A stretch of DNA of 64,000 nt from Hydrogenophaga sp. Lineage in GTDB: Bacteria; Pseudomonadota; Gammaproteobacteria; Burkholderiales; Burkholderiaceae_C. The stretch is from contig NZ_SDDV01000008.1 in the NCBI RefSeq assembly GCF_014773545.1, positions 37,621-101,620 of the forward strand. Direction: 5' to 3'. The position numbers and the translations under genes were made by a program. Below, in pieces: positions 2 to 15,591 of this stretch; within the stretch, counting starts at the first letter, position 1, and every line of letters starts with the position of its first letter. The notes below the pieces were generated by a model that ran no database searches, was not told where the DNA came from, and saw nothing but the letters and a program-made list of their open reading frames with translations.

Positions 2-1057
2 CAAAAAATTCCATCGGCCCAGCGCGAAGCGCTGCGCCAGCGCCTGCTGAAATTGACACTGCCGCCCGACGGCTCGGCCGCTAACGGCTTCATTCTGCGC
101 ACCAACGCCGAAGATGCCAGCGACGCCGAACTGAGTGAAGACATTGCCTATCTGCGCAAAACCTGGGGCCGCATCAAGGACGCGGCAGCGCGTCAGCCGG
201 CTGCGACGCTGCTGCACGAAGACCTGAGCCTAATGCAGCGCGTGCTGCGCGACCTGGTGAGTGCCGATACGCAGTCGATTCGCGTCGATTCGCGCGAGCA
301 ATTCGGACTGCTGCAGGTTTTTGCCACCGAATTCATGCCCGACACCCTGAGCAAGTTGCAACTCCACAACGGTGAGCGGCCGATTTTTGACCTCTTCAAT
401 GTCGATGAAGACATCACGCGCGCGCTCAGCCGTCGGGTCGACCTCAAATCGGGCGCCTATCTGGTGATCGACCAGACCGAGGCGCTGACCACGGTGGACG
501 TCAACACCGGCGGCTTTGTGGGGGCGCGCAATTTTGACGACACCGTCTTTCGCACCAATCTGGAAGCCGCGCAGGCCATTGCGCGCCAGTTGCGCCTGCG
601 CAACCTGGGCGGCATCGTGATCGTGGACTTCATCGACATGGTGCGCTCTGAGCACCGCGAAGCCGTACTGACTGAATTTCGCAAGCAGCTCGCGCGCGAC
701 CGCGTCAAGACCATGACCGGCGGCTTCTCGCAACTGGGTCTGCTGGAGATGACGCGCAAACGCACCCGCGAGTCGCTGGCCCACATGTTGACTGAACCCT
801 GCCCGGCCTGCGCCGGCAAGGGCGCCGTCAAGACCGCGCGCAGCGTCTGCTACGACATCTTGCGCGAAATTTTGCGCGAAGCGCGTGCCTTCAACCCGCG
901 CGAGTTCCGGGTGCTGGCCACGGCCAAAGTGATCGAACTGTTTCTGGACGAGGAAAGCCAGCATCTGGCGGGCCTGTCAGACTTCATCGGCAAGCCGATT
1001 TCCTTGCAGGTCGAGAGTTCGATGACGCAGGATCAGTACGACATTGTTCTGATGTGA
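2..1057 (+). CDS. rng: Ribonuclease G, C-terminal part (5' end outside window)
   Basis: Endoribonuclease of the RNase E/G family, which trims 5S/16S rRNA precursors and degrades mRNA in the cytoplasm. The frame is open from base 2, upstream of the TTG the ORF track used, so this is a gene cut by the window edge. Seen: DVNTGGFVG and the later DFIDM, which hold the two metal-binding aspartates of the DNase I-like catalytic core, and CPACAGKG, the CPxCxG zinc-link that holds the dimer. The protein ends QYDIVLM and lacks the long disordered tail of RNase E, so it is RNase G rather than RNase E. The last codons recur in altered form at 4667-4690, beyond an inserted segment, suggesting that the 3' end of this copy came in with the insert. 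Confident on family. Confidence 0.93.
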   Translation, partial: QKIPSAQREALRQRLLKLTLPPDGSAANGFILRTNAEDASDAELSEDIAYLRKTWGRIKDAAARQPAATLLHEDLSLMQRVLRDLVSADTQSIRVDSREQFGLLQVFATEFMPDTLSKLQLHNGERPIFDLFNVDEDITRALSRRVDLKSGAYLVIDQTEALTTVDVNTGGFVGARNFDDTVFRTNLEAAQAIARQLRLRNLGGIVIVDFIDMVRSEHREAVLTEFRKQLARDRVKTMTGGFSQLGLLEMTRKRTRESLAHMLTEPCPACAGKGAVKTARSVCYDILREILREARAFNPREFRVLATAKVIELFLDEESQHLAGLSDFIGKPISLQVESSMTQDQYDIVLM

Positions 1058-1403
1058 TGTTTCACGGCGTCTCACGCCGGCCCACTTGCCACCCGCAACC
1101 CCGCATGAATGCTGGCGATTTCGGGTTTCAGCGCCTCTCCAGGGCTCTTGAAGTCCCACCATGTCCGCTGGCCTGTGGCTACATGGCCGTGGACTGGGAC
1201 AGCTTTGTGATGGACAACTCGGGCACCCAAAGCCAGCGCGCGAACACCCGGACGAGTCGGCTTTGACTTTGAGCCTGTGCGGCAGGAAAAATCTGAACCG
1301 AAACCCAATGAGAGCGGAAAAATCAGCCAAAACCGGGATGGGCGGCGATGGCTCACGGATTCAGGTGATATTCTTGCTGCCACGCAGTCGAAGAAGCGCA
1401 GCC
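1058..1403. other. Non-coding gap at the left end of the insertion
   Basis: About 350 bases between the rng stop and the ParD-like gene. Several short ORFs cross it on both strands, but none resembles a protein family I recognise. No tRNA, integrase, terminator or convincing promoter is visible; a TGATATTC near 1370 is only a weak -10 candidate. It most likely belongs to the incoming segment rather than to the native rng-msbA junction. Confidence 0.4.
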
Positions 1404-1565
1404 ATGGGCATGAACGTCAACCTGACCTTGCAGCTTGAGGAACTGGTTCGTTCCAAGGTGGCCTCGGGGCTCTACACCTCCGCCAGTGAAGTGGTCCTCG
1501 AAGCGTTGCGCCTGATGGCCGAGCAGGACCGCCTGCGCGAGGCCTGGCTGCATCAACGAACCTGA
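1404..1565 (+). CDS. ParD-like ribbon-helix-helix antitoxin, C-terminally truncated
   Basis: A 53-residue protein starting at ATG 1404 (a second ATG is at 1410), much shorter than the ORF-track entry that begins at 1161. The sequence MNVNLTLQLEEL, then VRSKVASGLYTSASEVVLEAL and RLMAEQDRLRE, is the pattern of ParD/CopG-type type II antitoxins: an N-terminal beta strand followed by the two RHH helices that bind operator DNA. Family members usually run to about 80-90 residues. Here a stop follows LREAWLHQRT, so most of the toxin-binding tail is missing. No separate parE follows; instead the next gene begins within 7-19 bases and has a RelE/ParE-like N-terminal domain. It could still be a DNA-binding autorepressor, or a decaying remnant. 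Confidence 0.6.
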   Translation: MGMNVNLTLQLEELVRSKVASGLYTSASEVVLEALRLMAEQDRLREAWLHQRT

Positions 1566-1584
1566 CATCGGATTGCCGTATCGA

Positions 1585-4500
1585 ATGCGCCTGCTGCAAT
1601 ACAAGGACCTGAATCTGCGCCGTGTCAGGGCCGCGTTCGACAAGGTCAAGGCGGCGATCGAGGCCGGCGACTTCCGCTCGGCCGACGTGAAGAAGCTGCA
1701 CGCCGGGCCGTACTACCGCGCGAAGCTGGACTACGCCAACCGGCTTCTGCTGCAGTTCGCGCGCATCAAGCGCGCCGAGGCCGAAGGCGGCACAGAGACC
1801 GTGTGCCTGGCGCTGGAGGTGATCGAGAGCCACGCCTACGAACGCTCGCGCTTCCTGCGCGGCGCCACGGTGGACGAAGCGCGCATCGAGCGCGAGCCGC
1901 TCACCGATGCGAAGGCCCCCTCGCTGGCGGAGGAAGCGACGCCCTTGCGCTGGCTGGGCACGGGCCGCACGCAGTTCGAACTGCTGGACAAGCCCATCGT
2001 CTTCGACGACGCCCAGGACGAGGCCTGGCGCCACCCGGCGCCGCTGGTGCTGATCGGTTCGGCCGGCTCGGGCAAGACCGCGGTCACGCTGGCGCGGCTG
2101 CGCCAGGCCGAGGGCCGGGTGCTGTACGTCACGCTGTCGGCCTACCTGGCGCAGAGCGCCCGCGTGCTGCACGCCGCGCACGGCTTCGAGAACCCCAGGC
2201 AGGAGGTCGACTTCCTCAGCTACCGCGAGTTGCTGCAGACGCTGCGCGTGCCGCCGGGGCGCGAGGTGACGCTCGCGATGTTCGCCGTCTGGTGGGAACG
2301 TTTCCAGCAGGGCCACCGCCAGACCCTGCGGCTGCTGGGCGAACTGGACGCCCAGGCGCTGTTCGAGGAATTCCGCGGTGTCATCGGCGCGCAACCGACG
2401 GGCCCGCTGTCGCTGGCCGACTACCTGGCGCTGGGCACGCGGCAGAGCCTGCTGAACACGGCGCAGCGCGAACGGGCCCACGGCCTGTTCCAGCGCTACC
2501 GGGCCTGGCTGGACGAGGCCGGCCTGCACGACAGCAACCTGGTGGCGCATGCGTGGCGCACCCAGATCGCCGAGCAGCAGCCGCCGATCTACGACTTCGT
2601 CGTGATCGACGAGGTGCAGGACCTGACACCCGTGCAACTGGCGCTGGTGCTGGCGATGCTGAAGCAGCCCGGGCAGTTCATCCTGTGCGGCGACAGCCAC
2701 CAGATCGTGCACCCCAATTTCTTCAGTTGGGCGGCGCTGAAGAGTCTGTTCTGGCAGGGCCTGGCGGGTGATGCGGCACAGCGCCAGCCGCTGAAGCTGC
2801 TGCAGGCCAACTTCCGCAACACGCGCGCCGTCACCGCACTGGCCAACCGGCTGCTGAAGATCAAACAGGCGCGCTTCGGCTCGGTGGACCGCGAGAGCAA
2901 CTTCCTCGTGCGCAGCACCTCGGCCATGGCCGGAGAGGTGCGGCTGCTCGACGCGAAGGACAAGACCCTCGCGCAACTGGACGCGGCCACCCGGCAATCG
3001 GCGCGGCACGCGGTGATCGTGCTGAGGGACGAGGACAAGCCCGCCGCGCGGCTGGTTTTCCACACGCCGCTGGTGTTCAGCGTGCACGAAGCGAAGGGCC
3101 TGGAGTACCCGCACGTGCTGCTGTTCAAACTGGTCTGCGGCCAGCGCCAGACCTATGCCGAGGTATGCGAGGGCGTGACCGCAGCCGACCTGCAGAGCGA
3201 CGAGATCGACTACCGCCGCGCGCGTGACAAGGCGGACAAGTCGCTGGAGCTGTACAAGTTCCAGGTGAACGCGCTGTACGTGGCCATGACGCGCGCGGTG
3301 GAGACGCTGACGCTGGTGGAGCAGGACACCGGCCACCCGCTGCTGGGGCTGCTGGGCCTGCAGCTGGGCGAGTCGGCTGCGCAGCCGGTGGCCAAGTCGA
3401 GCCAGGACGAATGGGCGCAAGAGGCGCGCCGGCTCGAGCTGCAAGGCAAGGCCGAGCAGGCACAGGCCATCCGCGATGCCTTCCTGCAGCACAAGCCCGT
3501 GCCCTGGACGCCGTGGAGCCGCGCCCTGATCGAGGAACTGGCACCCAAGGCCCTGGACCCGAAGAACCCGAGCAGCAAGCCGCGGCAAACCCTGTTCGAC
3601 TACGCCCTGTGGCACGGCCAGCACGAGTGGGTGCAAAGTCTGGGCGAGGCCGGCTTCGCCCCGGCGCGCGCGCTGATGGAAGAACGCGAGTTCGCCGGCG
3701 CCGGCACGCTGCTGCCCCCGCGCTACGGCATCGATAGCCCCTGGCTGGCGCGGCAGCAACTGGTGCGCCGCGCCGTGTCCGCCCTGCACCAACGGCACCT
3801 GCAGCCCTACCAGGCCAGGCACTTCAAGGACATCCTGCGTGCCGCCGACATGCACGGCCCCGACCATGCCGAGCCGGTGGGCGCCACGCCGCTGATGCTG
3901 GCCGCGACGGCCGGCAACGCCCCCTTGGTGGAGGCGCTACTGGCCAAGGGTGCGGATCCCGGGCGACGCGACGAGTTCGGGCACACCGCCTGGGACCACG
4001 CTGTCGGCCGCGCGATGCGCGAGGCCGCCTTCGCGGGCAGCGGTCTGCCGGTGCTCTTCGACCTGATCGCACCACCGGCACTGGACGTGCAGACCGACGG
4101 GCGGCTCGTACGGCTGGAACGGCACCAGGCAGAGTACTGGGTGCTGACGCTGATGCTGGCTGGGCTGAAGACGCAGTGGTCGCGGTGCGTCACGCGGCAC
4201 CAGGAGCCCTACAAGGTCCTCGCCGGCTTCTTCGCCGACCAGCTGCACGATGTGTTGCAGCAACTGCCGGCGTGGTTGTGGCCCAAGGCGCGGTGCAAGC
4301 GCACCTACGTCAACCAGGTATTGGCCCGCGCCGAGGTGCACAGCAGTTACCAGCCCGCGCGCCGCCTGTGGGTGCGCACGAAGAACGGCCACTACATCCC
4401 CAACTCGCAGATGCAACTGCGTGAGGGCGAAGGCTGGCAGCCAGTCTACGAGCGGCTGGCCCTGGCCTGGATCGACCGTGGCTGCGGCCGCGAGATCGAT

Positions 4501-4611
4501 CACCGGCCGCGGCCGGTGGAGGCGATCCAGTGGGTGAGTGAGGCGCTGGAGCGGGCTGCGCAACCCGAGCCGCCGCCGGCGGATCCGCACGGTCAGCAGC
4601 GGATGTTCTGA
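1585..4611 (+). CDS. RelE/ParE-like domain - UvrD-type SF1 helicase - ankyrin fusion protein
   Basis: About 1008 residues from ATG 1585 (the track starts at TTG 1573, four codons upstream). Residues 1-95 read like a RelE/ParE-fold domain (KKLHAGPYYRAKLD, then CLALEVIESHAYERSRFL). A superfamily I helicase core follows: Walker A GSAGSGKT near 160, Walker B VVIDEVQD near 340, GDSHQ, ANFRNT, VHEAKGLEY and the arginine motif LYVAMTRA near 566. A segment from about 765 (GATPLMLAATAGNAPLVEALLAKGA) is ankyrin-like, and about 200 unassigned residues end the protein. It should bind ATP and translocate on DNA; the actual role is unknown. Third codon positions are almost all G or C, more so than in neighbours, and the gene sits in an insertion at the rng 3' end. 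A mobile defence or toxin-linked gene is a possible reading, by inference only. Confidence 0.8.
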   Translation: MRLLQYKDLNLRRVRAAFDKVKAAIEAGDFRSADVKKLHAGPYYRAKLDYANRLLLQFARIKRAEAEGGTETVCLALEVIESHAYERSRFLRGATVDEARIEREPLTDAKAPSLAEEATPLRWLGTGRTQFELLDKPIVFDDAQDEAWRHPAPLVLIGSAGSGKTAVTLARLRQAEGRVLYVTLSAYLAQSARVLHAAHGFENPRQEVDFLSYRELLQTLRVPPGREVTLAMFAVWWERFQQGHRQTLRLLGELDAQALFEEFRGVIGAQPTGPLSLADYLALGTRQSLLNTAQRERAHGLFQRYRAWLDEAGLHDSNLVAHAWRTQIAEQQPPIYDFVVIDEVQDLTPVQLALVLAMLKQPGQFILCGDSHQIVHPNFFSWAALKSLFWQGLAGDAAQRQPLKLLQANFRNTRAVTALANRLLKIKQARFGSVDRESNFLVRSTSAMAGEVRLLDAKDKTLAQLDAATRQSARHAVIVLRDEDKPAARLVFHTPLVFSVHEAKGLEYPHVLLFKLVCGQRQTYAEVCEGVTAADLQSDEIDYRRARDKADKSLELYKFQVNALYVAMTRAVETLTLVEQDTGHPLLGLLGLQLGESAAQPVAKSSQDEWAQEARRLELQGKAEQAQAIRDAFLQHKPVPWTPWSRALIEELAPKALDPKNPSSKPRQTLFDYALWHGQHEWVQSLGEAGFAPARALMEEREFAGAGTLLPPRYGIDSPWLARQQLVRRAVSALHQRHLQPYQARHFKDILRAADMHGPDHAEPVGATPLMLAATAGNAPLVEALLAKGADPGRRDEFGHTAWDHAVGRAMREAAFAGSGLPVLFDLIAPPALDVQTDGRLVRLERHQAEYWVLTLMLAGLKTQWSRCVTRHQEPYKVLAGFFADQLHDVLQQLPAWLWPKARCKRTYVNQVLARAEVHSSYQPARRLWVRTKNGHYIPNSQMQLREGEGWQPVYERLALAWIDRGCGREIDHRPRPVEAIQWVSEALERAAQPEPPPADPHGQQRMF

Positions 4612-4665
4612 GCTGGCATCTCGATGCGGATAAGGCGACGATTCGGAAGGGCTTGAACCTAAACC

Positions 4666-6495
4666 TCAATACGACATCGTGCTGCTTTGAGTCCGGGCGG
4701 CTGCGCGCTCGCCGGCAAAGCCCTGCGCATGCAGCCGGGCGTACAAGCCGTCGGCCTGCAACAGTTCGCGGTGCGTGCCCTGTTCGCTGATGCGGCCCTG
4801 AGCCAGCACCACCACGCGATCGGCGTGCTCGATGGTCGAGAGCCGGTGCGCGATCACCAGCGTGGTGCGGCCCTGCATCAAGCGCGCCAGCGCATCCTGC
4901 ACCAAACGCTCGGACTCGTTGTCCAGCGCCGATGTGGCCTCGTCCAGAATCAGGATCGGTGCGTCTTTATAAATTGCGCGCGCAATCGCCAGCCGCTGGC
5001 GCTGTCCGCCCGAGAGCTCGACCGCGTTGTGCCCCACGCTGGCGTGTATGCCTTGCGGCAGGCGCTCGATCAAATCGCCCAGGTTGGCCGCTTGCAGCGC
5101 CTGGTGAACCCGCTCCTGGTCCAGTGTCTCTTCGTCGGCACCGAGCGCGACGTTGGCAGCCAGGCTGGCGTTGAGCATCACCACGTCCTGGCTGACCATG
5201 GCAAACTGGCGCCGCAGGCAGGCCAGGTCCCAGTCAGTCAGCGGCACACCGTCGAGACAGACCTGTCCCTGCTCGACTTCGACGAAACGGGGCAGCAGGT
5301 TGACCAGCGTGGTCTTGCCCGCACCCGAGGGGCCGACCAGCGCCAGTACCTCACCCGGAGCAATTTCCAAATCGACGCCGTGCAGCGCCACGCGGGTGTC
5401 GTCGCCCGGACTGTCGTCGGCCGCCGGGTAGCGCACCCAGACGCCGCGCAGCCCAATCGCCCCACGCGCACGCTGCACCTGGTGGCTGCCGCTGCTTTGC
5501 TGCGGGGTGTTCTCAATCAAGTCCAGCGCGCGCTCCAGCGCCGCCAAGCCGCGTGTGATGGGGCCGGCGATTTCAGCCAGTTGCTGAATGGGGCGAATCA
5601 GCAGCAGCATGGCGGTGACGAAAGCAACAAAACCACCCACGCTCACGCCGCCGGTGCCGCTTTGCCACAAGGCCACCATGATCACCGCCGACAGCGCCAC
5701 CGCGGCCAGCATCTGAGTCAGCGGCGCCATGGCGGCTTGGGCCACGGTGGACTTCATGGCCAGCCGGCGCAACACCAGACTCAGGCGTTCAAACCGGACG
5801 CCCTGGCGTGCCTGTGCCGCGTGCAGCCGCAGCATGCGGTGCGCCAGCGCGTTTTCTTCCACCACGTAAGCCAGTTCGTCCGTGGCTTGCTGGCTGGCCC
5901 GCGTGAGCCGGTAGAGGCGGCGCGAGAGCTGGCGCATGACCCAGATCAAACCGGGAAAAATAGCCAGCACAATCAGCGTGAGCTGCCAGTTCAGGAACAA
6001 CAAATAGCCCAGCAAGGCCAGCGCGGTCAGGCTGCTTTTGCTCAGGGTGAGCAGCGATTGCACCAGCAGCGCCGAACCGTTTTGCACCTCGTAGACCAAG
6101 GTATTGGAGAGCTTGCTGGCACTCTGGCGCGCAAACAGCGCCAGCTCTGCTTCGCACAGTTGGGCAAACATGGCGCGGCGCAGGTTGAGCAAACCCAGGC
6201 TGGCGGTGTGCGTGAGCGCGTACTGGGCCAAGAAAGTGGCCAGACCACGCACGGCAAACAAACCCAGCAAGGCCAGCGGAACCATCCAGAGTGCGACCTG
6301 CCCCTGGGCAAAACCCTGGTCGAGCAGGATTTTGAGCAGGGCCGGAATCAGGGGTTCGGTCAGCGCAAACACCAGCGAACTGGCCAGCGCCAGCGCCACG
6401 CCAGCGCGCGCAGGTCGAAAATAAGGCCAGATCCGCCACAGCCGCTGGCGCACGCTGCCACTGGGGGTTGCGCTGGGTATGGGGTGGGTGGTCAA
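4666..6495 (-). CDS. msbA: MsbA-type lipid A/lipid exporter, ABC permease-ATPase
   Basis: 609-residue half-transporter with fused membrane and ATPase domains, predicted to flip lipid A-core or another lipid across the inner membrane as a homodimer. Five to six hydrophobic segments lie between residues about 30 and 300. The ATPase shows Walker A GPSGAGKTT near 388, the signature LSGGQRQR near 494 and Walker B ILILDEATSALD near 514, followed by the H-loop IAHRLSTIEHADRV. Length matches the MsbA family. The last codons (ending TMSY) overlap the stranded copy of the rng tail, so rng and msbA were probably tail-to-tail overlapping neighbours before the insertion. Substrate is inferred from family; a related peptide or lipid exporter cannot be excluded. 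Confidence 0.85.
   Translation of the reverse strand: MTTHPIPSATPSGSVRQRLWRIWPYFRPARAGVALALASSLVFALTEPLIPALLKILLDQGFAQGQVALWMVPLALLGLFAVRGLATFLAQYALTHTASLGLLNLRRAMFAQLCEAELALFARQSASKLSNTLVYEVQNGSALLVQSLLTLSKSSLTALALLGYLLFLNWQLTLIVLAIFPGLIWVMRQLSRRLYRLTRASQQATDELAYVVEENALAHRMLRLHAAQARQGVRFERLSLVLRRLAMKSTVAQAAMAPLTQMLAAVALSAVIMVALWQSGTGGVSVGGFVAFVTAMLLLIRPIQQLAEIAGPITRGLAALERALDLIENTPQQSSGSHQVQRARGAIGLRGVWVRYPAADDSPGDDTRVALHGVDLEIAPGEVLALVGPSGAGKTTLVNLLPRFVEVEQGQVCLDGVPLTDWDLACLRRQFAMVSQDVVMLNASLAANVALGADEETLDQERVHQALQAANLGDLIERLPQGIHASVGHNAVELSGGQRQRLAIARAIYKDAPILILDEATSALDNESERLVQDALARLMQGRTTLVIAHRLSTIEHADRVVVLAQGRISEQGTHRELLQADGLYARLHAQGFAGERAAARTQSSTMSY
4667..4690 (+). repeat. Second, diverged copy of the rng 3' end (insertion boundary)
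   Basis: The plus strand here reads codons for QYDIVLL and a stop, matching the true rng ending QYDIVLM and stop at 1034-1057. The two 24-base stretches agree at 19 positions; three of the five differences are silent third-position changes. It is not part of any long ORF and overlaps the end of the minus-strand msbA gene. The simplest explanation is that a segment entered at the rng tail, bringing its own tail and leaving the native one stranded here. Confidence 0.65.
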
Positions 6496-6712
6496 AATGC
6501 TCTATCCAGGGCGTGAAAACAGGTGAAAGCCGGGGAACCAACGACACTTAGGGGAAACCAAGGGCCTGAGTCGTTCGCGCCGGCTTGGTTTGGCCTTGCT
6601 TTTGGTCACGAATCGACGCAGCAACTTCGGTATTATCGATTGCCCTGTGTCTGTGTCGCTGTATGGGCTGGCTGAACAGGCTGGCAGGGATTTTTTTCAA
6701 TGTGCACAAAGG

Positions 6713-8029
6713 ATGCCGACTTTGAACCGATTTGATCACCAGCTGCGGCCCCGTCGCCGTGCGGTGCTGGCCACCCTGGGCGCACTGCCTTTGCTGGCTT
6801 GGCCGCTGCGCGACGCGCGGGCGCAGTTCCGGGTCGAAGTCGCCGGCGTGGGCCTGACGCAGTTCCCCTTTTCGGTGGTGAACTTTCGCGGCAATGAGGC
6901 CGCCAGCCCGAACATGGCTGCGATCGTGCGCGCCAACCTCGAACGCAGCGGCCAGTTTCGTTTCGTCGAACCGCTGGCCGGCGCACTCGACGAAACCGCG
7001 CACCCGGATCTGAGCACCTGGCGCGGCCAGGGGGCCGATTCGCTGCTCACCGGCAGCGTGTCCCGGCTGGCCGATGGCCGCTTCGACGTCCGCTTTCGCC
7101 TCTGGGACGCGGTGCGCGGGCAAGACTTAGGGGGCTTGAGCTACCCGGTCACAGAAGCAGATTTGCGGCTGGCTGCGCACCGTGTGTCGGACCACGTGTA
7201 CGAAAAAATTACCGGCGACAAAGGCGTGTTTTCGACCCGCATTGCCTACGTCACCAAGGTCGGCGTGCGCCACACGCTGTGGGTTGCCGACGCCGACGGT
7301 GAAAATCCGCGCGCTGCCCTGACCAGCACCGAGCCCATCATTTCGCCCAGTTGGGCCCCGGGCGGCACGCAACTGGCCTATGTGTCGTTCGAGGCCCGCA
7401 AGCCGGTGATTTACACCCACGACCTAGCCAGCGGCAGGCGCCGTCTGCTGGCCAATTTCCGCGGCTCCAACAGCGCGCCGGCCTGGTCGCCCGACGGCCG
7501 GCAGTTGCTGCTCACGCTCTCGTTGTCGGGCAATTCGCAGGTCTACGTCATCTCCGCCGACGGCGGCGAGCCGCGCCGTCTGACACACAGCAACAGTATC
7601 GACACCGAGGCGGTCTACAGTCCGGACGGCCAGTCGATTTATTTCATCAGCGACCGGGGCGGTTCACCGCAAATTTATCGCATGGGCGCCGGCGGCGGCA
7701 ACGCGCAGCGCCTGAGCTTTAGCGGCAACTACAACATCTCGCCCGCACCCAGCCCCGACGGGCGCTGGCTGGCCTACATCTCGCGCGTGGCCGGCGCGTT
7801 CCGGCTGCACGTCATGGAGCTCGCCAGCGGCACCGTCACGGCCTTGACCAACACCAGCGCCGACGAGAGCCCCAGCTTTGCGCCCAACAGCCGGCTGATC
7901 ATTTACGCCAGCCGCGACAGGGGCCAGGACGCCTTGATGACCAGCACGGTCGATGGCCGCATCAAATCCAGGCTGACCGGTGCGCAGGGCGACATTCGCG
8001 AACCCGAATGGGGACCGTTCATGCGCTGA
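6713..8029 (+). CDS. tolB: Tol-Pal system periplasmic beta-propeller protein TolB
   Basis: Periplasmic partner of Pal in the trans-envelope Tol-Pal machine that keeps the outer membrane tethered during division. I start at ATG 6713 (438 residues), not at the track start 6590, because the signal peptide begins just after it: RRRAVLATLGALPLLAWPL then ARAQ. A TTG at 6722 is an alternative, since AAAGGA lies eight bases before it while the ATG has almost no spacing. Repeated propeller blades are visible (SPSWAPGG, APAWSPDGRQ, EAVYSPDGQS, SPAPSPDGRW, SPSFAPNS). The twin arginines suggest possible Tat export, which is not certain. pal and cpoB follow; tolQRA is not adjacent but lies at 45.9-47.9 kb. 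Confidence 0.93.
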   Translation: MPTLNRFDHQLRPRRRAVLATLGALPLLAWPLRDARAQFRVEVAGVGLTQFPFSVVNFRGNEAASPNMAAIVRANLERSGQFRFVEPLAGALDETAHPDLSTWRGQGADSLLTGSVSRLADGRFDVRFRLWDAVRGQDLGGLSYPVTEADLRLAAHRVSDHVYEKITGDKGVFSTRIAYVTKVGVRHTLWVADADGENPRAALTSTEPIISPSWAPGGTQLAYVSFEARKPVIYTHDLASGRRRLLANFRGSNSAPAWSPDGRQLLLTLSLSGNSQVYVISADGGEPRRLTHSNSIDTEAVYSPDGQSIYFISDRGGSPQIYRMGAGGGNAQRLSFSGNYNISPAPSPDGRWLAYISRVAGAFRLHVMELASGTVTALTNTSADESPSFAPNSRLIIYASRDRGQDALMTSTVDGRIKSRLTGAQGDIREPEWGPFMR

Positions 8030-8092
8030 TGGCACCTGAACACGCCCAACCCAGACTTTGATCCCGACCCAGCACAGAAAGGCAACCCTCAC

Positions 8093-8689
8093 ATGCGTTC
8101 GACCTCCCAATCGCCCCTCCCCGATTCAAACTGGAGCACTGCAGGCCGCGCGTCCGCCTGGGTGACGGGCCTGTTACTGCTGGTCTCGCTGAGTGCCTGC
8201 GGCACCGGCGTCAGACTCGACCAGGCACCGGTCGAAGACCGGGTTGCCGCACCGGTGAGCGCGATTGCCCCGGCGCCGGCAGGCCAAGGCGCCGGCGTGG
8301 AGCCGCGTGGGGTCTCTGGCGTTGAAGTGGCCAGCGCGGACGTGGTGCAGCCCGCAGGCATGAGCCGGGTGGTGTATTTCGATTTCGACCGCTACGACAT
8401 CCGGCCCGAATTCATGCCCACACTGGAAGCCAATGCGCGCCATCTCAATGCCGACCGCAGCCGCCGCGTGGCGCTCGAAGGCCACACCGACGAGCGCGGG
8501 GGGCGCGAGTACAACTTGGCGCTGGGGCAAAAACGGGCCGAAGCGGTGCGTCGCACCCTGTCTTTGCTGGGCGTGAACGAGGCGCAGATGGAAGCGGTGA
8601 GCTTTGGCGAAGAAAAACCAGCAGCAGCCGGTTTTGATGAGGCGGCCTTTGCCCAGAACCGCCGGGTCGAACTGAGCTACCGGCGCTAA
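8093..8689 (+). CDS. pal: Peptidoglycan-associated lipoprotein Pal
   Basis: Outer-membrane lipoprotein that binds peptidoglycan and TolB. The N-terminus carries a lipoprotein signal ending in the lipobox LSAC at about residues 33-36, giving a lipidated cysteine. A proline/alanine-rich linker precedes an OmpA-like domain (residues about 95-198) with VYFDFDRYDIRP, the peptidoglycan-binding EGHTDERGGREYN and the closing NRRVEL. At 198 residues it is slightly longer than usual because of the linker. It lies 63 bases after tolB with AGAAAGG-like ribosome binding sequence, and cpoB starts five bases after its stop, so the three are probably co-transcribed. Confidence 0.95.
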   Translation: MRSTSQSPLPDSNWSTAGRASAWVTGLLLLVSLSACGTGVRLDQAPVEDRVAAPVSAIAPAPAGQGAGVEPRGVSGVEVASADVVQPAGMSRVVYFDFDRYDIRPEFMPTLEANARHLNADRSRRVALEGHTDERGGREYNLALGQKRAEAVRRTLSLLGVNEAQMEAVSFGEEKPAAAGFDEAAFAQNRRVELSYRR

Positions 8690-8694
8690 GTGAA

Positions 8695-9495
8695 ATGAGA
8701 GCTTATTTACCACGTGCACCCGTCTTGTTGTTGGCTCTGGGCTTGCATCTGGGCGCGCTTGCGCCGCTGTCGGCGCAGGCGTTCACACTTTTCAGTGACG
8801 ACGAAGCGCGCAAAGCCATCATCGATTTGCGCCAGCGGGTCGAGGCGAGCCAGCAAGCCAGCAACGCCGCCTTGCAAGCGCTCCAGCAATCGACCCTGGA
8901 CGAGCAGACCGCGCTGCGACGCAGCCTGGTTGAACTTGGCGGCCAGATCGATCAGTTGAATTCGGAGCTTGCGCGCCTGCGCGGACTCAACGAGCAACTG
9001 ACGCGCGAAGTCGCCGAGTTGCAGCGCCAGCAAAAAGACGTGCAGGCTGGGCTGGATGAACGCCTGCGCCAGGTCGAGCCGCAGCGCATCACGCACGACG
9101 GCGTCAGCTTTAGCGCCACCACGACCGAAACGAGCGCCTTTGAAGCCGCCCTGGATCTGCTGCGCCGCGCCGATTTTCCGGCGGCCATCGAGGCCTACAC
9201 GGCTTTTCTGCGCCGCCACCCCGAGAGCGGCTACAGCGCCTCGGCGCTGTACTGGCTGGGCAACGCGCACTATGCCCAGCGCGCTTACCGCGCAGCACTG
9301 GAGACGCACCGCCGCCTGGTGACGCAATTTCCCATGCACCTGCGCACGCCTGAGGCCATGCTGGCGATGGCCAACAGCCAGATCGAACTGAAAGATACCC
9401 GCGCCGCACGCCGCACCCTGGAAGAACTGCAACGCGCGCACCCGCAGTCAGAAGCAGCTGCCGTGGCGCGTGAGCGGCTGGCCCGCTTGCGCTGA
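8695..9495 (+). CDS. cpoB: Cell division coordinator CpoB (YbgF)
   Basis: Periplasmic TPR protein that links Tol-Pal constriction to peptidoglycan synthesis at the septum. A signal peptide (residues 1-29, ending LSAQA) is followed by a coiled coil of about 80 residues rich in Q, L and E (DLRQRVEASQQ, QIDQLNSELARLRGLNEQL), then C-terminal TPR repeats from about residue 145 (FEAALDLLRRADFPAAI, ALYWLGNAHYAQRAYRAAL). 266 residues, normal for the family. It is the last gene of the tolB-pal-cpoB run and is followed by a strong GC-rich hairpin. Confidence 0.92.
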   Translation: MRAYLPRAPVLLLALGLHLGALAPLSAQAFTLFSDDEARKAIIDLRQRVEASQQASNAALQALQQSTLDEQTALRRSLVELGGQIDQLNSELARLRGLNEQLTREVAELQRQQKDVQAGLDERLRQVEPQRITHDGVSFSATTTETSAFEAALDLLRRADFPAAIEAYTAFLRRHPESGYSASALYWLGNAHYAQRAYRAALETHRRLVTQFPMHLRTPEAMLAMANSQIELKDTRAARRTLEELQRAHPQSEAAAVARERLARLR

Positions 9496-9534
9496 GAAGC
9501 CAAGGCACGGCGCCCAAGAGGCCACATCGACCGG

Positions 9535-9561
9535 GGGCTGGGCAGCGCCGCCGCCCAGCCC
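9535..9561. terminator. GC-rich hairpin after cpoB
   Basis: A perfect 9-bp inverted repeat, GGGCTGGGC and GCCCAGCCC, with a nine-base loop lies between cpoB and the transporter gene. There is no T-run after it, so it may be a weak terminator, an mRNA-stabilising stem, or the end of the tol operon by another mechanism. Confidence 0.4.
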
Positions 9562-9611
9562 GGCGACGCGCTGGGTCGTGGCTGCGAACCTGACCCTGGC
9601 CTGCTTTTACA

Positions 9612-10733
9612 ATGGCCCCCATGGACATCGCCCACGTACAACAATTGCAAACCACCGTGCTGTGGGCTGCTTTTGCGCTTGCCGCTGCTTTTGGCTTCAT
9701 CGCTCAGCGCACCCATTTCTGCACCATGGGCGCTATCAGCGACATTGTGACCATGGGCGACTGGAGCCGCATGCGCGTATGGGCCATGGCTGCGGGCGTG
9801 GCTATGATCGGTTTTCATGCCCTGGCCTGGCTGGGCTGGATCGATGCCGGTCAAACCATTTACACCTCGGGCCGCGTCATCTGGCTCTCGGCCTTGACAG
9901 GCGGCGCCTTGTTCGGCTTTGGCATGGTGCTGGCTTCGGGTTGCGGCAGCAAAACGCTGCTTCGCATGGGTGCGGGCAGCCTCAAATCGCTGGTGGTTTT
10001 TATCGTCATGGGCTTTGCCGCCTACGCCAGTCTGCACGGCGTGACAGCGGTGTTGCGTGTGAACACGGTTGACACGGTGGCGCTTCACATCCCGGCTGGC
10101 GCGGCGCTGCCGGCCTGGATCGCCTACGCCTGGGGCCTCGATCTGGCCCTCAGCGGCCTGTTGCTGGCGCTGTTGCTGGGCGGCGCTCTGGTGCTCTGGG
10201 CGCTGTTGGGCCGCGGTTTCCGTACCGGCAACAACTTGCTGGCTGGCTTGGGTCTGGGTTTGCTGGTCGTCGCCATGTGGTGGGTCAGCGGTGGTCTGGG
10301 TTTTGTGGCCGAACACCCGCATACGCTGGAGCCCACCTATCTGGCCACCCACACCGGACGGATGGAGTCGCTCACCTTCACCGCTCCCCTGGCGCACACG
10401 CTGGACTGGCTCATTTTCTTCAGCGACGCATCAAAGCTGCTTACCCTGGGCGTGGTCAGCGTGGTCGGCGTCGTGTGCGGCGCCTTTTTACAGGCCTTGC
10501 TTGGCCGCAACTTCCGCCTGGAAGGCTTTCACGGCACCCAGGACACCGCCTTGCACCTGCTGGGTGCGGTCTGCATGGGGGTGGGCGGCGTCACCGCGCT
10601 CGGCTGCACCATCGGTCAGGGCCTGTCCGGACTTTCGACCCTGAGCCTGACCAGCATGATCGCTGTCGGCGGCATCATGCTCGGCGCGCTGGCCGGCCTG
10701 CGCTTGCAAATGTACATACTGGAGCGCGGCTGA
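9612..10733 (+). CDS. YeeE/YedE family sulfur-compound membrane transporter
   Basis: Inner-membrane protein of the YeeE/YedE (DUF395) family, whose characterised members import thiosulfate. About nine hydrophobic helices span 373 residues. The conserved cysteine motifs that pass the substrate are present: RTHFC near residue 36, ASGCGSKTLLR near 120 and TALGCTIGQGLSG near 340. The start is either ATG 9612 or ATG 9621 (MDIAHV). This is the long single-polypeptide form with two half-domains. No sulfur-oxidation or TusA-like gene is adjacent, so the substrate is inferred from the family only. Confidence 0.85.
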   Translation: MAPMDIAHVQQLQTTVLWAAFALAAAFGFIAQRTHFCTMGAISDIVTMGDWSRMRVWAMAAGVAMIGFHALAWLGWIDAGQTIYTSGRVIWLSALTGGALFGFGMVLASGCGSKTLLRMGAGSLKSLVVFIVMGFAAYASLHGVTAVLRVNTVDTVALHIPAGAALPAWIAYAWGLDLALSGLLLALLLGGALVLWALLGRGFRTGNNLLAGLGLGLLVVAMWWVSGGLGFVAEHPHTLEPTYLATHTGRMESLTFTAPLAHTLDWLIFFSDASKLLTLGVVSVVGVVCGAFLQALLGRNFRLEGFHGTQDTALHLLGAVCMGVGGVTALGCTIGQGLSGLSTLSLTSMIAVGGIMLGALAGLRLQMYILERG

Positions 10734-12009: not shown

Positions 12010-15000
12010 ATGGCCATCCACATTGCCCTGAGCCACGTCACCCATTATCGATACGACCAGATGGTCAAACTTGGTGCACAAGTGGTGCGTCTGCGCCCGG
12101 CGCCCCACTGCCGCACCAAAGTGTTGTCGTATTCGCAGAAAATCGAGCCGAGCGGCCACTTCATCAACTGGCAGCAAGACCCTTTTTCCAATTACCAGGC
12201 GCGCCTGGCGTTTCCCGAACCCACCACCGAGTTCAAGGTCACGATCGATCTGGTGGTGGAAATGGCGGTGCACAACCCATTCGACTTCTTCCTGGAGCCG
12301 AGCGCCGAGACGTTTCCGTTCAGCTACGACGCGGCGCAGCAGCAAGAACTCGCGCCCTATCTTTTCACCCTGCCGCTGACCGAGCCGGTCAAGACCTACC
12401 TCGCCCATGTAGACGTGCGCCAGCGCCGCACGATCGACTTTCTGGTCGACATCAACCAGATGATCCAGCGCGACATCTCGTACACCATCCGCCTGGAGCC
12501 GGGCGTGCAAACGCCTGAGGAGACACTCAAACTCAAAAGCGGCTCCTGCCGCGACTCGGGCTGGCTGCTGGTGCAGTTGCTGCGCCACCTGGGCTTGGCG
12601 GCGCGCTTCGTCTCGGGCTACCTGATTCAGCTCACGCCCGACGTGAAGTCGGTCGACGGCCCGAGCGGCCCTGAAAAAGACTTCACCGATCTGCACGCCT
12701 GGTGCGAGGTCTTTCTGCCTGGTGCCGGCTGGATCGGGCTCGACCCCACCGCAGGCCTGCTCGCCGGCGAGGGCCACATCCCGCTGGCCTGCACGGCGCA
12801 ACCCTCCAGCGCGGCGCCGGTGGAAGGCTGCGTGGACCCGTGCGAGGTCACTTTCAGCCACCACATGGGTGTGACACGCGTGCACGAATCGCCGCGCGTG
12901 ACCAAGCCCTACACCGAAGACCAATGGGCCAGCGTGCTGGCGCTGGGCCAGCAAGTCGATGCCGACCTCGACCTGCACGACGTGCGCCTGACCATGGGCG
13001 GCGAACCCACCTACGTGGCCTGCAACGACCGCGACGCCGCCGAGTGGAACACCGAAGCACTCGGCCCCAGCAAACGCGGCTACGCCACCGAATTGCTGGG
13101 CCGCCTGCGCGAACGCTACGGTGCCGGCGGCTTCGTGCATATGGGCCAGGGCAAGTGGTACCCTGGCGAGCAACTGCCGCGCTGGGCGTTCTCGCTGTTT
13201 TGGCGCACCGACGGCACGCCCTGCTGGAACAACCCAGACCTGCTGGCCGACGAGCGCGAACAGGCGCACTACAGCGCTGAAGATGCGCACCGCTTCACCC
13301 AGGCGCTGGCGCGCAAGCTGGGCCTGTCCACCCAATACATCAGCGCTGGCTACGAGGACACCTGGTACTACCTGTGGCGCGAACGCCGCCTGCCGGTGAA
13401 CGTGGACCCGTTCGACAGCAAGCTAGACGACGAGATGGAGCGCACGCGCCTGCGTCGGGTCTTCAGCCAGGGACTGGATGCGGCGGTAGGCTATGTATTG
13501 CCATTGCAAGCCCAGGGCCACGGCGCACTCTCCAGCAACGGCAAAAACCCTTACCTCCACGCCTCGGGCACGGTCTGGTCGACCGGCCCTTGGTTCTTGC
13601 GTGACGAGCGCATGTACCTGATTCCCGGCGACTCGCCCATGGGCTACCGCCTGCCGCTGGACTCGCTGCCCTGGGTCTCGGCCAGCGACTACCCCTTTCA
13701 GATCGAGCAAGACCCTCATACCGCGCGCGACCCGCTGCCCACGGGTTCGGTGCTGCGTCACCAGGTGTCGCCGCACCAGATTGGTGGCGGTTTCGCCGAA
13801 GGCGGCACCGTGTCCCTGCAAGGCACCGACTTCGATGTCGATGCAGCGGCCATCGAGGGCCTGCGCCAGGGCCAACCCGGCCCCGGTGCCGTGCCTGCAC
13901 AGGCGCTGTCGGCCCGTTTCCCGCAGCGCGGCGAGTCGGCCGCGTGGTTGACGCGCACCGCGCTGGTGGTGCAAGCGCGCGATCCGCAGTGCGCCAACGG
14001 CCCCCAGGCCGAGCAAAAAGACGGCGGCAAAAGCCAGCACCTCTACGTATTCATGCCGCCCGTGCAGCAGTTGGAAGACTACCTGGAGCTGCTCTTGGCG
14101 GTGGAAGCCACGGCCGAGCGGCTGGCCATGAAAATCGTTCTCGAAGGCTACCCGCCGCCACGCGATGTACGCCTGAAAATGCTGCAGATCACACCCGACC
14201 CGGGCGTGATCGAGGTCAACATCCACCCCAGCAGCAGCTTCCCCGAACTGGTCGAGCGCACCGAATTTCTCTACGACGCGGCCCACCACACGCACCTGTG
14301 CGCCGAAAAGTTCATGACCGACGGCCGCCACACCGGCACCGGTGGCGGCAACCACTTCGTGCTCGGCGGCGCCACGCCGGCCGACTCGCCCTTCCTGCGC
14401 AAGCCTGAACTGCTGGGCAGCCTGCTGGCTTACTGGCACAACCACCCCGCGCTGTCCTACCTGTTTAGCGGGGTGTTCATCGGCCCCACCAGCCAAGCCC
14501 CGCGGGTGGACGAGGCGCGCAACGACCAGCTCTACGAACTCGAGATCGCGCTGCAACAGATCGAGAACAACCGCCAGGTCTATGGCCAAAACATGCCGCC
14601 CTGGCTGGTTGACCGCAGCTTGCGCCATATCCTGATCGACGTCACCGGCAACACCCACCGCAGTGAATTCTGCATCGACAAGCTCTACTCACCCGACAGC
14701 GCCACCGGCCGCCTGGGCCTGCTGGAGTTGCGCGCGTTCGAGATGCCGCCACACGCCCGCATGAGCATCGCGCAGCAACTGCTGTTGCGCGCGCTGGTGG
14801 CGCGCTTTTGGCAACAACCCTTCGTCGGACGTCTCACGCGCTGGGGCACCGAGCTGCACGACCGCTTCCTGTTGCAGACCTTCATTCGGATGGATTTCGA
14901 AGACGTGCTGACCGACTTGGCCGAGTTTGGCTACCGCTTTGACATGGCCTGGTTCGAACCGCATTTCGAGTTCCGCTTCCCGCTGGTGGGTCAAGTGGCT

Positions 15001-15516
15001 GCGCGCGGCATCGAACTCACGCTGCGCGGTGCGCTCGAACCCTGGCACGTGATGGGCGAAGAAGGAGCGCCCGGCGGCACCGTGCGCTACGTGGACTCGT
15101 CACTGGAGCGCATCGAGGTGCATGTGAGCGGCTGGAATGACAGCCGCCACGTCATCACCTGCAACGGCCGCGCCCTGCCCCTGCAAAACACCGGAACCGT
15201 TGGCCAGCATGTGGCCGGCGTGCGCTACAAGGCCTGGAGCCCGCCGTCGGCGCTGCACCCGTCGATTGCCGCGCACGCACCGCTGACCTTCGACATCGTC
15301 GACACCTGGATGCAGCGCTCGCTGGGCGGCTGCCAGTACCATGTGGCGCACCCCGGCGGCCGCAACTACGACACCTTCCCGATCAACGCCTACGAGGCCG
15401 AAAGCCGGCGTCTGTCGCGCTTCTTCCAGATCGGTCACACCCCTGGCCGCATGGTGATAGAACCCGCCACACCGAGCCGGGAATTTCCGTTCACGCTCGA
15501 TCTGCGCAAGCGATAA
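12010..15516 (+). CDS. Transglutaminase-like cysteine protein fused to DUF2126 domain
   Basis: 1168 residues from ATG 12010 (the track start at 11776 runs through the IS remnant). The N-terminal 300 residues form a bacterial transglutaminase-like domain with the Cys-His-Asp triad in [11 protein letters not shown] (near 180), [11 protein letters not shown] (near 232) and GLDPTAGLL (near 252). From about 320 to the end is a DUF2126 (COG4196) domain with [41 protein letters not shown] and [13 protein letters not shown]. The transglutaminase fold could make or cut amide bonds; the DUF2126 activity is unknown to me. It heads a same-strand cluster with an ATP-grasp/alpha-E gene and a second transglutaminase, a widely conserved set proposed to act in peptide-like ligation, without established substrates. 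Confidence 0.85.
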
Positions 15517-15591
15517 AGCGCCCCGGGGCCTGGAGTCGGCTGGCGCAGCGCATCGGGCATCGAGCGACGGACACAGGCATACTGCAACGCC

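What the first reader, a model, noticed from the sequence alone, without database searches (positions are those of the whole stretch)
1585..4611. Fusion of a RelE/ParE-like domain, an SF1 helicase and an ankyrin-like segment
One polypeptide has a toxin-fold-like N-terminus, all main UvrD-type helicase motifs, an ankyrin-like segment and an unassigned C-terminal 200 residues. It lies in an inserted segment with skewed codon use and directly follows an antitoxin-like gene. Toxin-fold plus nucleic-acid motor plus protein-binding repeat is the kind of architecture found in anti-phage or abortive systems. This is the best candidate here for an undescribed system.
Basis: partly seen in the sequence, partly recalled or inferred. 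Interest (0 to 1): 0.8.

Follow-up and report, generated by a model that had tools for sequence, protein, structure and literature searches.

The report
Mobile toxin-like helicase in defence site
A single large bacterial protein joins a piece folded like an RNA-cutting toxin to a DNA/RNA-sensing motor, is found in hundreds of unrelated bacteria, and here sits as cargo in a DNA insertion site that in another genome holds a known anti-virus system, so it is probably an undescribed bacterial defence protein.

Summary
The fusion is real: one gene (1585-4611, ATG start conserved) with a RelE/ParE-like N-terminal domain, a complete UvrD-type helicase core, a short ankyrin segment and a conserved, unassigned C-terminus. 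Active-site-like residues of the toxin-like domain (R45, R53, H83, Y85) are invariant and the domain is under purifying selection. It is a solo gene: the 'antitoxin' upstream is a truncated ParD remnant, absent from relatives. The gene is cargo of a 3.6-kb integrated element: the 3' end of rng (RNase G) is duplicated at both ends (24 bp: 1034-1057, 4667-4690), and four same-genus genomes show the empty site to the base. In another genome the same site, with the same repeat, holds a type III CBASS anti-phage system; in others, toxin-antitoxin arrays. Best reading: a self-contained, nucleic-acid-triggered, translation-blocking defence protein, analogous to (not a member of) SLFN11. Fold and mobility are shown; RNase activity, trigger and anti-phage effect are inferred. 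Immediate neighbours are usually ordinary genes, so the defence case rests on site and architecture.

The parts
53..1057 (+). 3' part of rng (ribonuclease G); its 3' end is the integration site
   Evidence: Pfam RNase_E_G 5e-88, PRK11712 ribonuclease G
1034..1057 (+). left 24-bp repeat: current rng end, encodes QYDIVLM*
   Evidence: exact-pattern scan finds exactly two copies in this genome
1058..1180 (+). conserved left end of the integrated element
   Evidence: 81-91% identical behind rng 3' ends in L041 (two copies) and G164
1404..1565 (+). ParD antitoxin fragment (truncated; C-terminal part lost)
   Evidence: TIGR02606 9.8e-13 over 45 of 70 positions; not present upstream in relatives
1585..4611 (+). 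RelE/ParE-like - UvrD helicase - ankyrin - C-terminal domain fusion gene (1008 aa)
1585..1869 (+). RelE/ParE (BECR)-fold domain, residues 1-95; invariant K37 R45 R53 H83 Y85 and conserved SRFLR
1975..3384 (+). UvrD-type SF1 helicase core, residues 131-600 (Walker A 2056-2079, DEVQD 2608-2622)
   Evidence: Foldseek UvrD 2is4 E 2.6e-10
3880..4005 (+). ankyrin segment, about residues 766-807
   Evidence: Pfam Ank_5/Ank
4075..4464 (+). conserved unassigned C-terminal domain, residues 831-960 (winged-helix-like secondary structure, inference)
4667..4690 (+). right 24-bp repeat: displaced native rng end, encodes QYDIVLL*
   Evidence: homology to the empty site begins exactly here in L120, L121, L124, L125
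4666..6495 (-). msbA-type ABC transporter, right flank; adjacent to rng in relatives

Best explanation
The gene is cargo of a small integrated element at the 3' end of rng and encodes a self-contained conflict (probably anti-phage or anti-plasmid) protein. The UvrD-type motor, helped by the ankyrin and C-terminal domains, keeps the N-terminal RelE/ParE-type domain silent in cis. When the motor engages foreign or aberrant nucleic acid (ssDNA, replication intermediates or viral transcripts), ATP-driven rearrangement releases the N-terminal domain. That domain then cuts translated mRNA (or blocks another essential target) and stops growth of the infected cell. Shown here: domain content, fold, conservation of active-site-like residues and ATPase motifs, purifying selection, solo inheritance, horizontal spread, the exact insertion, and defence cargo at the same site. 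Inferred: cis-inhibition, trigger, RNase activity, anti-phage effect.
For: Top PDB fold matches of the N-terminus are RelE-superfamily toxins. hhalign to YoeB and ParE_like profiles gives full-length, in-register alignments that mostly score better than reversed and shuffled controls, though below significance. R45, R53, H83, Y85 invariant and residue 47 always K or R in 72 homologues; by the alignment K47 matches YoeB Arg59, R53 matches Arg65, H83 and Y85 match His83/Tyr84 (roles in YoeB: PMC3814384). Key residues of all SF1 motifs invariant. N-terminal dN/dS 0.13-0.24 in six pairs. Patchy: 16 of 300 Burkholderiales counting this genome; 144 plasmid records; 112 of 5426 E. coli genomes, the examined copies in chromosomal islands. 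Exact 24-bp-repeat insertion. The same site and repeat in G118 hold a type III CBASS: CdnD 1.6e-144, HORMA 2.9e-63, TRIP13-like 5e-28, SAVED effector; TA-type arrays in L041.
Against: No activity data. Foldseek E is only 0.01 and sequence hits to RelE/ParE families are sub-threshold. YoeB's general base Glu46 has no conserved counterpart. Two neighbours on each side are mostly housekeeping genes and known defence families are rare there. No dedicated PADLOC or NCBIfam model. No match in the phage collection and one full-length relative in viral contigs, which neither helps nor hurts.
Confidence: 0.5

Rival explanations
1. Accessory DNA-repair or plasmid-maintenance helicase in which the RelE-like domain is a catalytically dead docking module (to ribosome, RNA polymerase or gyrase), not a weapon.
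For: UvrD is the closest solved motor. Many copies sit alone beside housekeeping genes. ParE-type members of the superfamily are gyrase inhibitors, not RNases (PMC11980606). YoeB's general base is not conserved.
Against: R45, R53, H83 and Y85 are invariant, unusual for a dead domain. Strong horizontal spread and shared integration site with CBASS and TA-type cargo.
Confidence: 0.25
2. Selfish-element function: the protein helps the element integrate, replicate or exclude competitors rather than defending the host.
For: L078: an element of about 3.1 kb holding only this gene lies between tRNA-Phe and a 45-bp copy of its 3' end. No integrase is seen in the elements examined.
Against: The same rng site is used by an element lacking the gene (G118 CBASS), so the gene is not needed for that integration. 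No recombinase or replication-initiator domain found.
Confidence: 0.12
3. Type II toxin-antitoxin addiction module: the ParD-like product upstream neutralises the fused RelE/ParE-like domain.
For: ParD fragment ends 19 bp before the gene. TA genes are over-represented directly beside relatives (at least 13 of 149 adjacent genes, at least 11 of about 504 distal).
Against: The ParD copy is truncated at 45 of 70 positions. It is absent upstream of all other loci, and neighbouring TA genes are of unrelated families. Plasmid relatives show no annotated antitoxin directly upstream.
Confidence: 0.05

Closest known systems
Human SLFN11 (Schlafen)
   Same: N-terminal translation-targeting endoribonuclease plus C-terminal SF1-type helicase that binds ssDNA; antiviral; autoinhibited (PMC9482658)
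   Different: Here the nuclease-like domain is RelE/ParE fold, not Slfn core; the motor is UvrD-like with full motifs; ankyrin and extra C-terminal domain; bacterial and mobile. Analogy only.
RelE/ParE (BECR) superfamily toxins: YoeB, YafQ, HigB, Pfam ParE_like PF24732
   Same: Fold and position of Arg/His/Tyr active-site-like residues
   Different: Fused to a helicase, no cognate antitoxin, general base not conserved. The 2025 survey of multidomain RelE/ParE toxins (PMC11980606) has no occurrence of helicase or ankyrin in its main text and says that many multidomain proteins without an identifiable antitoxin were left out.
Gabija GajB (UvrD-like)
   Same: UvrD-type motor in defence; best PADLOC hits, E 2e-11, partial
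   Different: No gajA (OLD nuclease) next door; the effector-like domain is in the same protein.
PrrC/RloC anticodon nucleases (own knowledge, not tested)
   Same: One protein joins an NTPase to a translation-targeting RNase
   Different: ABC-type ATPase plus HEPN, not SF1 plus RelE fold.
Rep/UvrD/PcrA helicases
   Same: SF1A core motifs
   Different: Extra N- and C-terminal domains; solo accessory gene, not a core repair gene.

Membership tests
[quoted passage not shown]
   AF2 pLDDT 88; best Foldseek PDB hits are YoeB/ParE, YoeB, YafQ, HigB, prob up to 0.99, E 0.01
RelE/ParE (BECR-fold) superfamily | sequence-profile membership in a known family | tested here: inconclusive
   Pfam ParE_like 0.11 (3 members) and YoeB 0.022 (1 member) of 43; hhalign P 0.006 and 0.027, one shuffled control at 0.016
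RelE/ParE (BECR-fold) superfamily | catalytic set of ribosome-dependent RNases (base, Arg, His/Tyr) | tested here: inconclusive
   Arg, His, Tyr invariant; no conserved counterpart of YoeB Glu46
RelE/ParE (BECR-fold) superfamily | mRNA cleavage on the ribosome or gyrase inhibition | not testable with these tools
   needs biochemistry
Type II toxin-antitoxin system | adjacent cognate antitoxin gene, conserved with the toxin | tested here: not met
   truncated ParD only in this genome; no conserved partner in about 75 loci
UvrD/Rep SF1A helicases | motifs I-VI intact | tested here: met
   GSAGSGKT, DEVQD, GDxxQ, NFRN, EAKGLEY, TRA with key residues invariant in 72; Foldseek UvrD
UvrD/Rep SF1A helicases | 3'-5' unwinding activity | not testable with these tools
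   needs biochemistry
Gabija | gajA (OLD-family nuclease) next to gajB | tested here: not met
   neighbours in the window are rng and msbA; no GajA among the listed neighbour families of relatives
Schlafen | Slfn core nuclease domain | tested here: not met
   N-terminus matches RelE fold; only a sub-threshold SLFN-g3_helicase hit, E 0.022
Integrated mobile element | direct repeats at both ends and an empty site in relatives | tested here: met
   24-bp rng 3'-end repeat; four empty sites agree to the base
Integrated mobile element | own integrase | tested here: not met
   none among the ORFs of the 3.6-kb element; none recognised by inspection in L041, L203, L078

The most novel reading that the evidence does not exclude
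A widespread, undescribed class of one-gene immune protein in which an SF1 helicase senses invading nucleic acid and unleashes a RelE-type RNase in cis (a bacterial functional counterpart of SLFN11), carried here by one of a family of integrase-less cassettes that use the 3' end of rng as a defence hot spot.
Probability: 0.4. Interest if true: 0.85.

Novelty: new variant of a known kind. Interest (0 to 1): 0.62.

Why it matters
If right, it adds a single-gene defence family with more than 400 relatives in sequenced species genomes, in about 2% of complete E. coli genomes and on 101 Shigella plasmid records, still annotated as 'hypothetical' or 'UvrD-helicase domain-containing'. It would show that RelE-type toxins can be governed by a fused nucleic-acid motor instead of an antitoxin, the same logic as human SLFN11, and it makes that directly testable in laboratory E. 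coli. The rng 3' end also becomes a place to look for new defence cargo.

Tried and rejected
(1) ParD as cognate antitoxin: rejected, truncated and not conserved. (2) A conserved neighbour partner: clustering of 1068 neighbour proteins found none; +-2 neighbours are mostly housekeeping. (3) TA enrichment beside the gene: at least 13 of 149 adjacent versus at least 11 of about 504 distal genes, Fisher p 7e-4, but the Pfam control list is truncated to 25 families and p rises to 0.02-0.07 if 9-14 TA genes were hidden, so suggestive only. (4) General end-repeat detection in all loci: convincing only for the window, L078 (45-bp tRNA-Phe end) and, less clearly, L057 (104-bp ALDH fragment, not at the gene's end); generic statistics alone would have missed the 24-bp window repeat. 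(5) N-terminal domain elsewhere: in 399 Pseudomonadota genomes it was found only in long frames of this protein. (6) A motif CCGCATGAATGCTGG near the element's left end looked interesting, but nothing could be concluded. (7) Rfam: nothing in 900-4900. (8) Literature: no paper describing this fusion found. (9) The Shigella virulence-plasmid regions were counted but not fetched; not needed. (10) In four same-genus genomes an OmpA-like gene lies between rng and msbA; a resident gene, not an insertion like this one.

Full report
1. The observation. The frame 1573-4611 is open. Pfam gives UvrD-helicase (1.2e-8), UvrD_C_2 (4.6e-8) and ankyrin (2e-7, one short segment); the first 100 residues have no significant Pfam match.

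2. The N-terminal domain. An AlphaFold2 model of residues 1-104 (pLDDT 88) has strand-helix-three-strand topology. Its best PDB matches are RelE-superfamily toxins: YoeB/ParE 6n90 (prob 0.99, E 0.01), YoeB 2a6r, HP0894, YafQ, HigB. The E-value is modest, but the family agreement is strong. Sequence support is weak but in register: a few members touch Pfam YoeB (0.022) and ParE_like (0.11). hhalign against YoeB and ParE_like sets gives full-length alignments (P 0.006 and 0.027; reversed and shuffled controls mostly 0.06-0.7, one shuffle 0.016) that superpose VKKL...YYRAKLD..NRLL...H-Y on FKK...YSVRID..WR...H-DYE. In 72 homologues K37, R45, R53, H83 and Y85 never change and residue 47 is K or R. 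In YoeB, Glu46, Arg59, Arg65, His83 and Tyr84 contact the mRNA and serve catalysis (PMC3814384); by this alignment all but the general base Glu46 have counterparts. dN/dS of this domain against six close relatives is 0.13-0.24, as low as the helicase core. So the fold claim holds; RNase activity is plausible but unproved.

3. The rest of the protein. The helicase core keeps GSAGSGKT, DEVQD, GDxxQ, NFRN, EAKGLEY and TRA, with the key residues invariant. The full model (pLDDT 84.6) matches UvrD-DNA complexes (E 2.6e-10) ahead of HelD, AdnAB and others. The C-terminal 130 conserved residues are confidently folded but unassigned; helices followed by strands suggest a winged helix (inference).

4. 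The family. 16 of 300 Burkholderiales genomes, counting this one, have it. 144 plasmid records do (101 Shigella, plus Escherichia, Piscirickettsia, Deinococcus, Thermus, Methylosinus, Polymorphobacter and others), and 112 of 5426 E. coli genomes, 103 of 113 places on chromosomes. The E. coli copies examined lie in islands with inovirus-Gp2-like genes, a GTPase gene, Rpn, IS elements and adhesin operons. A Lysobacterales MAG has an 89%-identical relative of a Rubrivivax MAG copy (MAG contamination possible). Close relatives of this genome mostly lack the gene.

5. Neighbours. About 75 loci share no partner gene. The +-2 genes are mostly housekeeping, and PADLOC families are rare there. The upstream gene is co-directional in 48 of 75 loci and within 100 bp in 22. 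Unrelated TA genes (VapC/PIN, BrnT, HigB, ParDE, GNAT, MNT) directly flank the gene more often than distal positions, a suggestive excess only. In this window the ParD piece matches 45 of 70 model positions and occurs upstream of no other relative, so it cannot be the family's antitoxin.

6. The insertion. In same-genus genomes rng and msbA are adjacent. Aligning four empty sites, homology on the left reaches the rng stop (window 1057) and on the right begins at 4667, the QYDIVL codons of rng, in all four (in one of them the left alignment runs 21 bp further). The 24 bp are therefore present twice: 1034-1057 (QYDIVLM*, element-borne) and 4667-4690 (QYDIVLL*, the native end of this genus). An exact degenerate pattern for this site finds one copy in each of 64 genomes and two copies in only two of 300: this genome (3.6 kb apart) and G118 (8.0 kb apart); the reversed-pattern control finds none. 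The gene's GC3 is 0.915 against 0.76-0.84 in neighbouring genes.

7. The site carries defence cargo. In G118 the 8.0 kb between the two copies hold a type III CBASS: CdnD-like nucleotidyltransferase (1.6e-144 to 6p8u), HORMA protein (2.9e-63), TRIP13-like ATPase (5e-28), a relative of plasmid proteins annotated as SAVED-domain proteins, and by inspection a second nucleotidyltransferase plus a regulator-PIN pair. In L041, with an 82%-identical relative of this gene, the rng end occurs twice, each followed by the same ~120-bp stretch (92% identical to each other, 81% to this window), and the array holds MNT/HEPN, NYN, HigBA-like and MNT-HEPN genes (by inspection) before the helicase. L038 and L040 (86% and 85% identical) also lie downstream of rng ends, at 5.8 and 4.3 kb, though no displaced copy was found there. 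Left ends of the window, G118, G164 and L038 share GTTTCACGG or close variants behind the stop codon. No integrase was recognised in these elements. A separate case, L078, is an element of about 3.1 kb with only this gene, between tRNA-Phe and a 45-bp copy of its 3' end.

8. Mechanism. A RelE-type domain without an antitoxin must be harmless by default, so control in cis by the motor is the economical assumption. SF1 motors bind single strands, so the trigger is most likely foreign or aberrant nucleic acid, the output translation arrest. SLFN11 is built on this plan: N-terminal RNase, C-terminal SF1-type helicase, ssDNA binding, autoinhibition (PMC9482658). This is an analogy; the nuclease fold differs and membership is not claimed. 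Rivals: a repair or maintenance helicase with a dead RelE-fold docking domain (0.25), a selfish-element function (0.12), a TA module (0.05).

9. Known or new. The recent survey of multidomain RelE/ParE toxins (PMC11980606) does not mention helicase or ankyrin in its main text and left out many multidomain proteins without an identifiable antitoxin. No PADLOC or NCBIfam model covers the protein; public records call it hypothetical, ankyrin-repeat, AAA or UvrD-helicase domain-containing. I rate it a new variant of a known kind (single-protein toxin-plus-NTPase conflict systems).

Noticed in passing
L203 (G118:C39:6000-18530), 2035-10083: Type III CBASS locus plus regulator-PIN pair inserted between two copies of the rng 3' end, 8.0 kb apart: the rng 3' end is a defence integration site in Burkholderiales.
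   Followed up: partly
L041, 1497-1520 and 4780-4803: Tandem array at the rng 3' end: two copies of the end, each followed by a conserved ~120-bp stretch, with MNT/HEPN, NYN and HigBA-like genes between and behind them; no integrase recognised.
   Followed up: partly
L078, 9784-12922: Element of about 3.1 kb containing only the helicase gene between an intact tRNA-Phe and a 45-bp copy of its 3' end.
   Followed up: partly
L057, 8504-8607 and 13109-13212: 104-bp, 90% identical duplication of an aldehyde dehydrogenase fragment flanking a ParDE pair and the helicase gene; it does not reach the gene's stop codon, so the mechanism is unclear.
   Followed up: no
window 1100-1115; L191, L195, L199, L201: Motif CCGCATGAATGCTGG at the element's left end recurs at non-rng places in other Burkholderiales genomes, twice in inverted orientation 2.2 kb apart in G207.
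   Followed up: partly
plasmid collection: 101 Shigella plasmid records carry a relative (about 39% identity in the listed full-length ones), a retained, uncharacterised gene.
   Followed up: no
L184 (E. coli AGR5151), 12049-15899: In the E. coli chromosomal islands examined the gene is followed 60 bp downstream by an Rpn-family nuclease gene, possibly a local partner in that clade.
   Followed up: no
L140, L141, L142, L143 (rng-msbA intergenic): Four same-genus genomes have an OmpA-like gene of about 350 aa between rng and msbA where others have direct adjacency.
   Followed up: partly
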